Shown here: positions 35,947-39,700 of the stretch, piece after piece
Position numbering within the stretch: the stretch's first letter is position 1
Layout: each line of letters opens with the position of its first letter
Assembly (NCBI GenBank): GCA_029881255.1
Contig: JAOUMY010000004.1
Span: forward strand, 1-53,312
Direction: 5' to 3'
Source of the DNA: Gammaproteobacteria bacterium
GTDB lineage: Bacteria; Pseudomonadota; Gammaproteobacteria; S012-40
DNA: 53,312 bases
Program-made: the position numbers and the translations under genes
Notes under the pieces: generated by a model
What the model saw: the letters and a program-made list of their open reading frames with translations, nothing else
Databases searched by the model: none
What the model was told of the DNA's origin: nothing

Positions 35947-36744
35947 TCAGGGTTTTTTCCAGTAATATGCGCCATCGGCACCGCCGGCGACGATGCCTTT
36001 TCCATTTTTACAGGTTTCGAGAAAATCACCTTGCCCGCCTCCAGCTACGTCGATTGCACGACGCAAGGTTTTTATATGTTGGCGATAGGTTGCGGCCGCG
36101 TAGTCCTCTGGTTCAATATTGAGATACTCGGCCATTTGGGCGGTGGTAACTGGACGAGGAGAGCGTTCAACAAGACAGCGTAGGATTTTGCGCGGTGTTG
36201 GTGCCAGCGGGCGTTTCGGATTGTCCGGGTTCATTACTTTCTGATCCTTCCAGTACACTTCCCATGTATCGAGATCGAGTTTAAGCTCACCACTATTGAT
36301 GACTTTGTCTGTGGTCTGTGTTGGTGAACTCTGGCGAACCACGGCCTGCCGCAAAATGGCACGGATGCGCCACACCAGAACCTCTTCGATATTGCGCTGG
36401 TGTTTGGAGATAAAATCCGCCGCATTGTGTTCTACCAGTGCATCGCGTTCAATATCGGTGCCGTTATGCTCCGACAGAAAGATCACGGGTACGTCTTTCC
36501 ACTTTGTCTGTAGGGCGCGGGATACAGAAAAACCTGCCTGGTCGAAACCATTCATGCGTGCGTCAAGTATAGCAACGTCGGGGCGCTCGTCGTCTTTTGC
36601 GAGGTTAATGCGTTGGCATGCGGCCTCGGGGAATTTGAATACTTCGACGATGTTATTACTGTCGTCGAATGACGTCTCTTCTAGGACGTGTTTGAATTTG
36701 TTTATCCAGTGGGATTGGTCTTCTACCCAGAATATTCTCGCCAT
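35947..36744 (-). CDS. Response regulator with C-terminal winged-helix DNA-binding domain
   Basis: 265 aa. Receiver domain: IFWVEDQSHW, phospho-accepting Asp in DVAILDARMNGFDQAG, PVIFLSEHNGTD and Lys in ADFISKHQ. The C-terminal OmpR-type winged helix has RKILRCLVERSPRPVTTAQM and DYAAATYRQHIKTLRRAID (recognition helix). It is a transcription regulator for the adjacent kinase; targets are unknown. The ATG at 36744 follows the large repeat region, which therefore forms its upstream DNA. Confidence 0.9.
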   Translation of the reverse strand: MARIFWVEDQSHWINKFKHVLEETSFDDSNNIVEVFKFPEAACQRINLAKDDERPDVAILDARMNGFDQAGFSVSRALQTKWKDVPVIFLSEHNGTDIERDALVEHNAADFISKHQRNIEEVLVWRIRAILRQAVVRQSSPTQTTDKVINSGELKLDLDTWEVYWKDQKVMNPDNPKRPLAPTPRKILRCLVERSPRPVTTAQMAEYLNIEPEDYAAATYRQHIKTLRRAIDVAGGGQGDFLETCKNGKGIVAGGADGAYYWKKP

Positions 36745-36904: not shown

Positions 36905-37034
36905 CCTAGGGGGAACAGGAGAGAGGATGGGACTTACAAGACTCGCTGCAAATACTTCCCTGTACGCTCTGCGGCCGCGTCCGTGCGGCCGAAGGTCTTG
37001 TAAGTCCCATCCTCTCTCCTATACCCCCTAGGGA
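36905..37034 (+). repeat. Giant hairpin 1 (38-bp stem, 52-nt conserved loop)
   Basis: Left arm 36905-36942 pairs with right arm 36995-37032 in 36 of 38 positions. The loop (36943-36994) is 52 nt and contains its own 7-bp hairpin, CGGCCGC/GCGGCCG (36972-36978 with 36985-36991). The loop is nearly identical to the reverse complement of the loop of hairpin 2, while the stems are unrelated. The element lies upstream of the response regulator gene. Confidence 0.9.
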
Positions 37035-37150
37035 TAGGTATCGGGCGCGCCGCTCGTGCTTGAATTTGGGTTTCATGCCGACATTCGAGTCAGCGTAAAA
37101 ACTAAATTGTTTGTATTCATTAAAAGAGATTCTTTGAGTCACCATTTGGC

Positions 37151-37230
37151 GAATCCACGAATCCACGAATCCACGAATCCACGAATCCACGAATCCACGA
37201 ATCCACGAATCCACGAATCCACGAATCCAC
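37151..37230. repeat. Tandem octamer repeat, ten copies
   Basis: GAATCCAC is repeated exactly ten times (80 bp), followed by a broken copy (GATCCAAAC). It sits between the two giant hairpins. ORFs reading through it give repeating Trp-Ile-Arg peptides and are not credible genes. Perfect short repeats like this often vary in copy number by slippage. Confidence 0.95.
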
Positions 37231-37261
37231 GATCCAAACCTTTGCACAATGCGAGCTCGTA

Positions 37262-37371
37262 AGCCTGGGGTCGGTGTCGCTTGGCAAAACCTTCGGCCGC
37301 ATGGACGCGGCCGCAGAGCGCACACGGACGTGTTCACAGCGAGTTTTGCCAAGCGACACCGACCCCAGGCT
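37262..37371 (-). repeat. Giant hairpin 2 (29-bp perfect stem, same 52-nt loop inverted)
   Basis: Left arm 37262-37290 pairs perfectly with 37343-37371. The loop (37291-37342) is again 52 nt; its reverse complement matches the loop of hairpin 1 at 45 of 52 positions, including TCGCTG at one end and CGCTCTGCGGCCGCGTCC with TGCGGCCGAAG at the other. The stem (GGGGTCGGTGTCGCTTGGC core) is unlike that of hairpin 1. Confidence 0.9.
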
Positions 37372-37513: not shown

Positions 37514-37542
37514 AAAAAAAGGGCCAACTCGAAAGTTGGCCC
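37514..37542 (-). terminator. Intrinsic terminator with UUCG tetraloop after the VWA lipoprotein gene
   Basis: GGGCCAACT (37521-37529) pairs with AGTTGGCCC (37534-37542). On the minus strand the loop reads TTCG, the very stable tetraloop, and the A-run at 37514-37520 becomes a seven-T tail. It lies directly after the stop codon of the minus-strand gene. Confidence 0.92.
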
Positions 37543-37554
37543 CTACACCGCGGG

Positions 37555-38205
37555 TTAACTGCGCAAGAGCTTTTCAAGGCGGTCGAGGTCATTGACGACG
37601 GTCCATGTTCCACCACCATCGCTAACCCGCTTCTCCCAAAGGTCCAAGCGATTCAGATACTCGCGGGGGTCGACATTATCCGAGCGTAGCTTGGTTACGT
37701 TCAGGGCAACAACTTTGATGCCCACCAATGGAATCTGAAAATCGCGGATATGGCCTTTGATGAGATCTTCTTCGAGATCCGAGAACACCAGAACATATTT
37801 TTCCGATGCGCCTGTCTCATTGAGATACTCCGAAGCCTGTAGTACACCACCCGTGATATCCGTAAACGAACTGCTTTTAACACCAGAGATGAAGTTATCA
37901 ATCTGACGTTTAAACTGACGTTTCTGCTCATTTGTGGCGCTTGGACGAGGATCGAATGTTATCTTCGATACGATGTCCTTCTCACTAAAGCTGCCACTGT
38001 CGATACGCGCTACAGCCAGGGAGTCTCCGCTGCTCAGATTGGCCAGTAGATAGTTGATGATCTTCTGCGCCTTTTGTAGTTCTTCCGTATAGGTGCCGGA
38101 GGTATCCAGTAACATAAACACCGCTTTCGTGCGTGGACCCTGTTCAGAACAACCGGCCAACAGTGTCATGCATGCTGCGAACAATAAAATTGATATGCGT
38201 TTCAT
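37555..38205 (-). CDS. VWA-like domain lipoprotein
   Basis: 216 aa. Lipoprotein signal KRISILLFAACMTLLAGCS (lipobox LAGC), then a von Willebrand A-like fold: AVFMLLDTSGTYTEEL (DxSGT metal motif, about residues 28-43), SSFTDITGGVLQASEYL and KYVLVFSDLEEDL. VWA domains bind partner proteins through a metal ion. It is 19 bp downstream of a large membrane protein gene on the same strand, so likely an envelope complex. The start at 38205 has GGAG about 9 nt upstream; the frame continues upstream to 38307 but overlaps the neighbour. Confidence 0.85.
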   Translation of the reverse strand: MKRISILLFAACMTLLAGCSEQGPRTKAVFMLLDTSGTYTEELQKAQKIINYLLANLSSGDSLAVARIDSGSFSEKDIVSKITFDPRPSATNEQKRQFKRQIDNFISGVKSSSFTDITGGVLQASEYLNETGASEKYVLVFSDLEEDLIKGHIRDFQIPLVGIKVVALNVTKLRSDNVDPREYLNRLDLWEKRVSDGGGTWTVVNDLDRLEKLLRS

Positions 38206-38224
38206 AATGAATTTCTCCAAAGTC

Positions 38225-39700
38225 TTATTTGACTTGATCGATTTCAGCGGCTTCAAGAAAGTGAATGTTTTCACCTTTTGGTAGTTTCTCAACATCGTCC
38301 TGAACAACGTGTTTGCGATGGTTGATAACTACCTTTTCAATGTGTAGTGGTAGAAAGATCAAGACATCATAGAGACCAACACAGACCTTAGTCAGATTGT
38401 TGAAAAGGTTGCCGCAAAAACGAATCATGAAAGACAGTGTGCGCAGCACGCCCAGTCCCATCAAACCCAGTACCGTACGTAAAGAGTGAATGAAGGATTC
38501 GAGTGGAATCGCAACAAAGGCCAATGTGAAGGGCAGTATAAAACCCATGATCATCTGACCCATGGACGGAATCCAACGAAACTCCGCATCAACAACACCT
38601 AAGCCCGATAGTGATTGCGCAAGTGCTTCACGGTCCATAGCCAGCAGATCGCGCATATAGGCAAGCGAGGCTTCTACGGTAGCCAATATGGTCAGAATAG
38701 TCAGGGTGATGATCAGCATCTTGCGGCGCATGTGGTCATCCATCGAATGTATAACGGGGAATAGATGGGTGATGCGCAGTGATTCCAGCAGGAATAGACC
38801 CATGGCCATTTCCACCATAATAATCACTAATGCTGCTACGTCTGCAGTCTTCATTGGACCCAGTTGTGATGTACCGCCGACCATTTCAGACATCGGCAGG
38901 GCAATCAACTGAAAGTTGATAACGGCGCCGAACAAGGCAATCAGTAAAACAAAACCGGCAATAAAGAACTGCGTGAGGGAAGATGAAGTTAGTGAACGCG
39001 CTGCGTGATCTTCAGCTGCGCGAATAGCTTCATAAGTTTTGATCTGGTTGTCAATTTTGTTAGAGCGTGACTCAAGATCATTAAAGCGATTATTTACCTC
39101 GTTTAAGGTTTGAGAGACCGTACGCCAGGAAGGCAGCATACGCTTTAATAGCTGATGACGCTGGAGACTGTTCTTGCGATAGCTGTCGATGGTTTCTTTG
39201 TGCGCAGTTTCGATAGTCTCATGTAGGCCGTCGAGAATTTTGGCTACTGTAGGGTCACCATGGCGAGGAATACGTGCAATGGTATCGACCGCGTCCAACC
39301 AGGCAGGAGGAGAGGGCGGTGTTTCGGTGGCGCTGCGATAGTCTTCCTCGATCTTGCTCAAGGCATCGCTGATCTTGCGATGCAGTGCAGGGTAGCCACT
39401 CAGGTCACGGGAAACAACAGCGTTTACGCGATGAAATTCGCGTTCGATTTGCTTTTCGACGTTGTTTAGGCCGGCAGCCAGAACGACTTCTTTATTGCGT
39501 TCAGTGAGCCGTTGCTCAAAGCGACTTAGCGAACGTGCACTCAGGCGCGCTGCCGCGCGTACTGATCTGCCCATAGAGCTTAGAAGCTGGTGGGCTGGGG
39601 TGCGTCCCAGATACATTGCCAGGACGATTAATACAAACCAAATAACGACGGACACGCCGGCGTTATTTGACCAAAGGTAAAACACATTTTCGACCGTCAT
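38225..39700 (-). CDS. Large membrane protein with long coiled-coil region
   Basis: 491 aa, unrecognised. One N-terminal membrane helix (about residues 15-33) is followed by about 200 residues of helical, partly coiled-coil sequence (residues 45-240, e.g. LSRFEQRLTERNKEVVLAAG, VNNRFNDLESRSNKIDNQIK). Then there are four or so membrane helices (LTQFFIAGFVLLIALFGAVI, AALVIIMVEMAMGLFLLESL, MLIITLTILTILATVEASLA, MGQMIMGFILPFTLAFVAIP). The C-terminal tail is cytoplasmic. The layout resembles mechanosensitive or secretion-type scaffolds only loosely. It forms an operon with the VWA lipoprotein gene. Confidence 0.75.
   Translation of the reverse strand: MTVENVFYLWSNNAGVSVVIWFVLIVLAMYLGRTPAHQLLSSMGRSVRAAARLSARSLSRFEQRLTERNKEVVLAAGLNNVEKQIEREFHRVNAVVSRDLSGYPALHRKISDALSKIEEDYRSATETPPSPPAWLDAVDTIARIPRHGDPTVAKILDGLHETIETAHKETIDSYRKNSLQRHQLLKRMLPSWRTVSQTLNEVNNRFNDLESRSNKIDNQIKTYEAIRAAEDHAARSLTSSSLTQFFIAGFVLLIALFGAVINFQLIALPMSEMVGGTSQLGPMKTADVAALVIIMVEMAMGLFLLESLRITHLFPVIHSMDDHMRRKMLIITLTILTILATVEASLAYMRDLLAMDREALAQSLSGLGVVDAEFRWIPSMGQMIMGFILPFTLAFVAIPLESFIHSLRTVLGLMGLGVLRTLSFMIRFCGNLFNNLTKVCVGLYDVLIFLPLHIEKVVINHRKHVVQDDVEKLPKGENIHFLEAAEIDQVK

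What the first reader, a model, noticed from the sequence alone, without database searches (positions are those of the whole stretch)
36905..37371. Two giant hairpins with a shared 52-nt loop but unrelated stems
Hairpin 1 (36905-37032, 38-bp stem, 36 pairs) and hairpin 2 (37262-37371, 29-bp perfect stem) have loops of exactly 52 nt. The loop of one is the reverse complement of the other at 45 of 52 positions, yet the stems share no sequence. In most known palindromic elements (REP/BIME, MITEs, attC sites) the stem or ends are conserved and the loop varies; here it is reversed. This looks like a mobile core that copies its flank into an inverted arm, for example by fold-back synthesis, or an RNA element selected for long stems of any sequence. 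The loop also holds a nested 7-bp GC hairpin.
Basis: partly seen in the sequence, partly recalled or inferred. Interest (0 to 1): 0.78.

Follow-up and report, generated by a model that had tools for sequence, protein, structure and literature searches.

The report
YPAL-like hairpins carrying paired CsrA-type sites
Two giant DNA hairpins in this window belong to a repeat family found across many gammaproteobacteria, whose tip keeps two sites resembling those bound by the global regulator CsrA while the long stem changes sequence but stays paired.

Summary
Hairpins at 36905-37032 (38 bp, 36 paired) and 37262-37371 (29 of 29 paired) have 52-nt loops that match as reverse complements at 45 of 52 positions. 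The source genome gives 21 model matches; 16 copies with an unbroken cap were read, all with 52 nt, 15 of them with a 22-40-bp stem. The core occurs in 75 of 369 sampled genomes of its class.

It is not wholly new. The Yersinia palindrome YPAL/RU-2 and the Rfam sRNA model Ysr224 carry the same cap; the reverse strand resembles TwoAYGGAY just below the Rfam cut-off.

Its first (a core that copies its flank) is not: arms travel with the core in recent expansions. CsrA binding, transcription and the mobilising enzyme remain inferred or unknown.

The parts
36905..37032 (-). Hairpin 1: 38-bp stem (36 paired) around a 52-nt loop; proposed folded strand is minus
36937..37000 (-). 64-nt conserved core of copy 1 (loop 36943-36994 plus 6 bp of stem each side)
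   Evidence: 82.9 bits
36972..36991 (-). Hairpin b of copy 1; on the minus strand it holds CACGGACG (CANGGANG form)
36953..36964 (-). Hairpin a of copy 1; on the minus strand it holds CAGGGAAG (CANGGANG form)
37262..37371 (+). Hairpin 2: 29-bp perfect stem around a 52-nt loop; proposed folded strand is plus
37285..37348 (+). 64-nt conserved core of copy 2 (loop 37291-37342)
   Evidence: 90.6 bits
37294..37313 (+). Hairpin b of copy 2; holds CATGGACG
37321..37332 (+). Hairpin a of copy 2; holds CACGGACG
37033..37261 (.). Spacer of the pair; 26 of 30 neighbouring pairs of copies under 600 bp apart have this arrangement
37150..37236 (.). 8-bp tandem repeat CGAATCCA, 11 copies, inside the spacer (relation to the element unknown)
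37519..37544 (-). Terminator-like hairpin after the minus-strand gene 37555-38307, before the pair (2 such sites found in the stretch, 1.4 expected)
35947..36744 (-). Neighbouring gene: response regulator with C-terminal DNA-binding domain (context only)
37555..38307 (-). Neighbouring gene, 250-aa ORF without Pfam match (context only)

Best explanation
The two hairpins are copies of a dispersed, YPAL-like palindromic repeat family of Gammaproteobacteria. The active form is the strand opposite to the one read: a stem of roughly 22-40 bp and almost free sequence that presents a fixed 52-nt cap with two small hairpins, each exposing a CANGGANG loop, 23 nt apart. The most likely reading is that the transcript of this strand is a two-site binding module for the RNA-binding regulator CsrA/RsmA, with the long stem holding and protecting the cap. 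Copies spread as units that include the arms, by an unknown route, are exchanged and flipped by recombination between copies, and diverge by paired changes in the arms. Shown: the anatomy, the copies, the paired stem changes, the strand asymmetry, the invariant GG of both loops, the same cap in YPAL/RU-2. Inferred: transcription, CsrA binding, selection in place, the route of spread.
For: Copies: 18 DNA matches and 21 model matches in the own genome. Fifteen own stems on the opposite strand: 25 of 28 outer pairs have changes on both sides, 98.6% of outer-stem cells paired; whole-structure covariation 0.727 against 0.164 in shuffles (0 of 500 as high) and at most 0.133 in slid controls. Loops: GG of both GGA motifs in 56 of 56 model-found copies, both CANGGANG in 47 of 56. 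Same slots in Marinobacter: 20 double changes in 99 stem positions where independent arms predict 6.8. RU-2 has the same cap (53 nt) with both motifs; 45 of 53 columns identical to a copy from a relative (L043), 36 and 34 of 53 to the two window copies. csrA is found in 70 of the 75 element genomes.
Against: The strand that folds best lies antisense to the nearest gene end in 64 of 92 copies with a gene end within 200 bp (heuristic gene calls), so it is not simply a sense 3' UTR; in the window no promoter stands out (1 found, 0.8 in shuffles). Cap bases outside the two loops are conserved too, which CsrA alone does not explain. Nine of 56 copies lack one or both complete motifs. One own copy (C21) has a perfect 52-nt cap but only a 6-bp stem, and 33 of 127 copies of named genomes have stems under 20 bp, some cut by contig ends. 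One largely complete element genome (G206, 98%) showed no csrA match; csrA is common anyway (242 of 294 genomes without the element). Stem pairing could be kept by templated correction between arms: 12 of 20 double changes are transversions that cannot pass through G.U.
Confidence: 0.5

Rival explanations
1. A single-strand DNA mobile element: the opposite strand folds as DNA and its cap is recognised by a transposase or recombinase (as IS200/RAYT enzymes read REP hairpins or integrases read attC); the GGA loops are enzyme contacts, not CsrA sites.
For: Matches per genome run from 0 to at least 129 in one genus; slots without the element exist; YPAL is reported with target duplications and empty/filled sites; G.T and G.A are also tolerated mismatches in folded DNA (recalled); extra conserved bases in the cap.
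Against: No recurrent neighbour gene: the largest recurring groups reach 6 of 174 loci. The only Y1 transposase match of the own genome is not flanked by the element; five other stretches with Y1 genes in relatives gave no match except an 11-bit fragment. One 70-nt query found no copy in plasmids and 2 partial phage matches, one pattern none in viral contigs. Pairing is kept between copies in the same slot of related species.
Confidence: 0.25
2. Pairing is a by-product: long quasi-palindromes are kept perfect by template switching between arms during replication, or by conversion between copies, without selection for structure.
For: Double changes outnumber single ones (20 against 6) and 12 of 20 are transversions; in the Stenotrophomonas-like genus one slot holds different hairpin types or flipped pairs in different species.
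Against: Does not by itself predict the strand-biased mismatches nor the invariant loop motifs.
Confidence: 0.12
3. A transcription barrier or mRNA-stability hairpin at gene 3' ends, working on the reader's strand like a REP or ERIC hairpin.
For: Ysr224 is modelled on this strand. YPAL is said to influence upstream transcripts.
Against: Mismatch bias points to the other strand; no use of the TCC loops on this strand is known to me.
Confidence: 0.1
4. Fold-back copying: a mobile core primes on itself and copies local flank into an inverted arm at each insertion.
For: Stems of the window copies and most own copies look unrelated by eye.
Against: Arms are shared among look-alike copies, part of the arm pattern is shared in the own genome, repeated units extend beyond the hairpin. 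Six short slots in other species hold no 12-mer of the arms of the filled slot, but those species are too distant for this to weigh much.
Confidence: 0.03

Closest known systems
YPAL / RU-2 (Yersinia palindromic sequences, about 168 bp)
   Same: The printed RU-2 sequence contains this cap (53 nt, both CANGGANG hairpins) in a long palindrome; multicopy and intergenic.
   Different: Described in Yersinia and Erwinia as one repeat; cap only 34-36 of 53 identical to the window copies; here stems are locus-specific and copies often form pairs. No CsrA link was seen in the passages read.
Ysr224 (Rfam RF02770)
   Different: All seen matches are below the gathering score (15.5-40.5 bits against 70); opposite strand to the one proposed here.
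TwoAYGGAY (Rfam RF01731), proposed CsrA-binding RNA
   Same: [quoted passage not shown] matches lie on the strand proposed here.
   Different: Best matches 42.8 and 40.4 bits, just under the gathering score 43; it matched 1 of 20 loci (the 40.4-bit one) and 0 of 8.
CsrB/CsrC, RsmX/Y/Z sponges (recalled)
   Same: GGA hairpins that titrate CsrA/RsmA.
   Different: Those are single regulated genes with many sites; here many dispersed copies with two sites each.
REP/BIME repeats (GTAG and CGTC families)
   Same: Dispersed palindromes, inverted dimers common (PMC3733652, passages).
   Different: REPs are 20-40 bp with stems of 5-13 bp (20-40 bp from its abstract); the families described in the passages seen have no 52-nt cap with two hairpins.

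Membership tests
YPAL / RU-2 | Two-hairpin cap with this sequence pattern | tested here: met
   53-nt cap with both motifs; 45 of 53 identical to L043, 36 and 34 of 53 to the window copies
YPAL / RU-2 | Multicopy palindrome outside genes | tested here: met
   a gene end within 200 bp in 92 of 120 copies
YPAL / RU-2 | Full 168-nt repeat including its stem sequence | tested here: not met
   window stems differ from RU-2
YPAL / RU-2 | Target-site duplications of 3-26 bp | not tested
   reported for YPAL; not measured for this family
Ysr224 (RF02770) | Score at or above gathering threshold 70 bits | tested here: not met
   21.7 and 15.5 bits in window, best elsewhere 40.5
TwoAYGGAY (RF01731) | Score at or above gathering threshold 43 bits | tested here: not met
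   own genome best 42.8, L088 40.4; none in the window at E up to 10
TwoAYGGAY (RF01731) | Two CsrA-type GGA hairpins on a variable external stem | tested here: met
CsrA-binding RNA | CANGGANG in hairpin loops | tested here: met
   47 of 56 model-found copies have two
CsrA-binding RNA | Binds CsrA and is transcribed | not testable with these tools
   needs gel shift and RNA-seq
REP with RAYT | Transposase gene flanked by the repeat | tested here: not met
   six stretches examined of those listed
REP with RAYT | GTAG tag and short stem | tested here: not met
   long stems, no GTAG among the conserved columns
attC site | Conserved outer boxes, variable loop (recalled) | tested here: not met
   outer stem is variable, cap conserved

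The most novel reading that the evidence does not exclude
A dispersed repeat that is itself a regulatory RNA module: many genomes carry tens to over a hundred copies of a two-site CsrA/RsmA decoy whose stem is held to pairing, not to sequence, so that the repeat load of a genome sets how much free CsrA it has; YPAL, Ysr224 and TwoAYGGAY would be scattered sightings of this one family on different strands.
Probability: 0.3. Interest if true: 0.82.

Novelty: new variant of a known kind. Interest (0 to 1): 0.6.

Why it matters
It joins three separately named sequences (a Yersinia repeat, an Rfam sRNA and an Rfam motif) into one family spread over a bacterial class, says which strand folds, and gives the repeats a testable protein partner. 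If copies really titrate CsrA/RsmA, selfish-looking repeats would be part of a global regulatory circuit. The stems also offer many natural cases in which to ask whether long hairpins stay paired by selection or by copying between arms.

Tried and rejected
Rejected or weakened: fold-back copying of flank as the source of the arms; attC and REP/RAYT membership; miRNA-family hits in Rfam, taken to reflect long stems only; a gene that goes with the element (927 ORFs of 174 loci, largest recurring groups in 6 loci, one of them with Marinobacter slots); plasmid, phage, E. coli or viral carriage (one 70-nt query each, one pattern; one search gave 2 partial Microbacterium phage matches, taken as chance).

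Limits of counts. Copies were found by patterns that demand TCC..TG in both loops, so they say nothing on loop conservation; (model-found, 56 matches, none dropped) is used for that, and the model itself was built from 16 copies. One search left out 28 of 192 copies with weak stems; one search left out copies with stem score under 12 or near a locus end, and its groups overlap in part (the named MAG FCS_M_Gamma_062.3 seems to be G002, and L071 is from the Stenotrophomonas-like genus). One search used crude ORFs and is superseded, which took only loci with G+C of 55% or more; of its 120 copies 28 had no gene end within 200 bp. The four comparisons were chosen because synteny showed up; they are not a random sample, and replacement by another copy cannot be excluded. 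The csrA cross-count (70 of 75; 242 of 294) was made by eye from the listings, absence meaning not among the 312 listed. At most 14 candidates per genome were scored, 150 and 129, so copy numbers are lower bounds; of the 21 own matches, 18 are listed and 3 were not seen. Two loci come from MAGs labelled alphaproteobacterial (L112, L134); L112 shares a 96% identical protein with Marinobacter L191, so misbinning is likely there, and L134 was not checked. 'Stenotrophomonas-like' is inferred from stems like those of named loci L109 and L184 and GTAG-type repeats.

Papers: PMC2864571, PMC4333381, PMC9029176, PMC2229807, PMC2267715, PMC2847712, PMC5193452, PMC2759123, PMC3733652, PMC11837529 (passages found by term); PMC9788540 (abstract, outline and passages; its two CsrA RNAs look unrelated as far as seen); PMC4066749 (term search, nothing found). 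De Gregorio 2006 on YPAL is not held: it is used only second-hand through PMC2229807. The CsrA consensus with its hairpin context is recalled, apart from the CANGGANG string in PMC11837529. That no paper joins these families rests on the searches only.

Full report
Observation. The shared block is 64 nt and includes the inner 6 bp of each stem.

Copies. The own genome (4.97 Mb, 44 contigs) has 18 DNA matches and 21 model matches (18 listed). Sixteen copies with an unbroken cap were read: all have 52 nt; 15 have stems of 22-40 bp (14 measured, the fifteenth folded), one (C21) has only 6 bp. Two more have an insertion in the cap. In loci from named genomes 115 of 127 pattern-found copies have a 52-nt loop, 11 have 53 and 1 has 50; 94 of 127 have stems of 20 bp or more. 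The covariance model of the core finds matches in 6 of 13 genomes of the family, 75 of 369 of the class, 28 of 398 of the phylum sample, all 28 in the same class, and 31 of 41 of one Stenotrophomonas-like genus, with up to 129 matches, the number scored.

Cap. The 52-nt cap has two small hairpins. Model-found copies (56) keep GG in both loops in 56 of 56; the T on either side is kept in 52 to 55 of 56 while the base opposite the second T varies. Read on the other strand, both loops are CANGGANG, complete in both for 47 of 56. The nine exceptions are listed. This is the CsrA/RsmA consensus (recalled; the string itself in PMC11837529). The two GGA are 23 nt apart in the 52-nt form (counted). A shuffle control on the core alone supports its helices: 97.0% of cells paired against 84.9%, covariation 0.358 against 0.130.

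Which strand. Stem mismatches are not symmetrical. C.T:G.A (0:1, 6:1, 9:2, 56:9, 19:5) and C.C:G.G (0:0, 1:0, 3:0, 18:0, 2:1) lean the same way outside the own genome. Related copies are not independent, so no probability is attached.

Stem. In 15 own copies, read on that strand, 25 of 28 outer pairs have changes on both sides and 98.6% of cells pair; covariation of the whole structure 0.727 against 0.164 in shuffles and at most 0.133 in slid controls. This alone does not separate paired change from independent origin of each stem. Copies in the same slot do better: between Marinobacter-type loci, 99 aligned stem positions hold 20 double changes (6.8 expected if arms were independent), 2 single changes that still pair on the folded strand, and 4 that break (alignments). 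L118 shows what looks like a decayed remnant where L188 is intact. In look-alike copies of one genome the arm is shared (Luteimonas, Methylomonas).

Arrangement. At two slots followed over 61 genomes of the Stenotrophomonas-like genus, 17 and 25 of the 30 loci fetched per slot show a copy (some loci hold only part of the slot), and the same place holds different hairpin types and sometimes a flipped pair, which points to recombination between copies. Four other species of the genus have 66-106 bp and no element in one slot (L320, L321, L322, L324), and some have unrelated palindromes there.

Known relatives. RU-2/YPAL, printed in PMC2759123, contains the cap with 53 nt: 45 of 53 columns identical to L043 from a relative, 36 and 34 of 53 to the window copies. 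TwoAYGGAY matches the other strand just below its cut-off; PMC4333381 had already proposed it as CsrA-binding and noted a poorly conserved external stem.

Against the CsrA reading. The GGA strand is antisense to the nearest gene end in 64 of 92 copies. In the window, copy 1 has its GGA strand on the strand of both neighbouring genes and copy 2 does not. No promoter stands out there. csrA is in 70 of 75 element genomes but also in 242 of 294 others, so it permits the reading without proving it. Cap bases outside the loops are conserved too.

Verdict. A well-defined variant of the YPAL kind, spread over a class, with strong evidence for a folded strand and a good but untested case for CsrA/RsmA as partner.

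Noticed in passing
37150-37236: Eleven copies of the 8-bp unit CGAATCCA lie between the two hairpins.
   Followed up: no
L011 1504-1618 and L014 1425-1539: Two own copies have an extra hairpin module inserted in the cap.
   Followed up: no
L015 and L018, around 1440-1520: A variant cap with a GGGCACAC..GTGTGCCC hairpin and a second hairpin GTTTCGG..CCGAAAC.
   Followed up: no
L341 112-175 (G000:C21:10811-10874): An own copy with an intact 52-nt cap but only a 6-bp stem.
   Followed up: partly
L334 (G405:C80:49300-49800): An unrelated giant hairpin (stem near 27 bp) sits in the intergenic slot that holds the element in related species.
   Followed up: no
L332 (G412:C1:4135300-4136000): A copy whose cap seems to have lost hairpin a but whose stem is intact.
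   Followed up: no
L254, L240, L211 inner flanks: In the Stenotrophomonas-like genus the DNA just inside many pairs keeps an inverted GGAAACTGTC-like motif and often contains GTAG-type palindromes.
   Followed up: partly
L335 4308-5030: The only Y1/RAYT-type transposase match of the own genome lies about 2.2 kb from one copy but is not flanked by the element.
   Followed up: yes
L071 1026-1343: Three tRNA genes with the same score in tandem near a copy.
   Followed up: no
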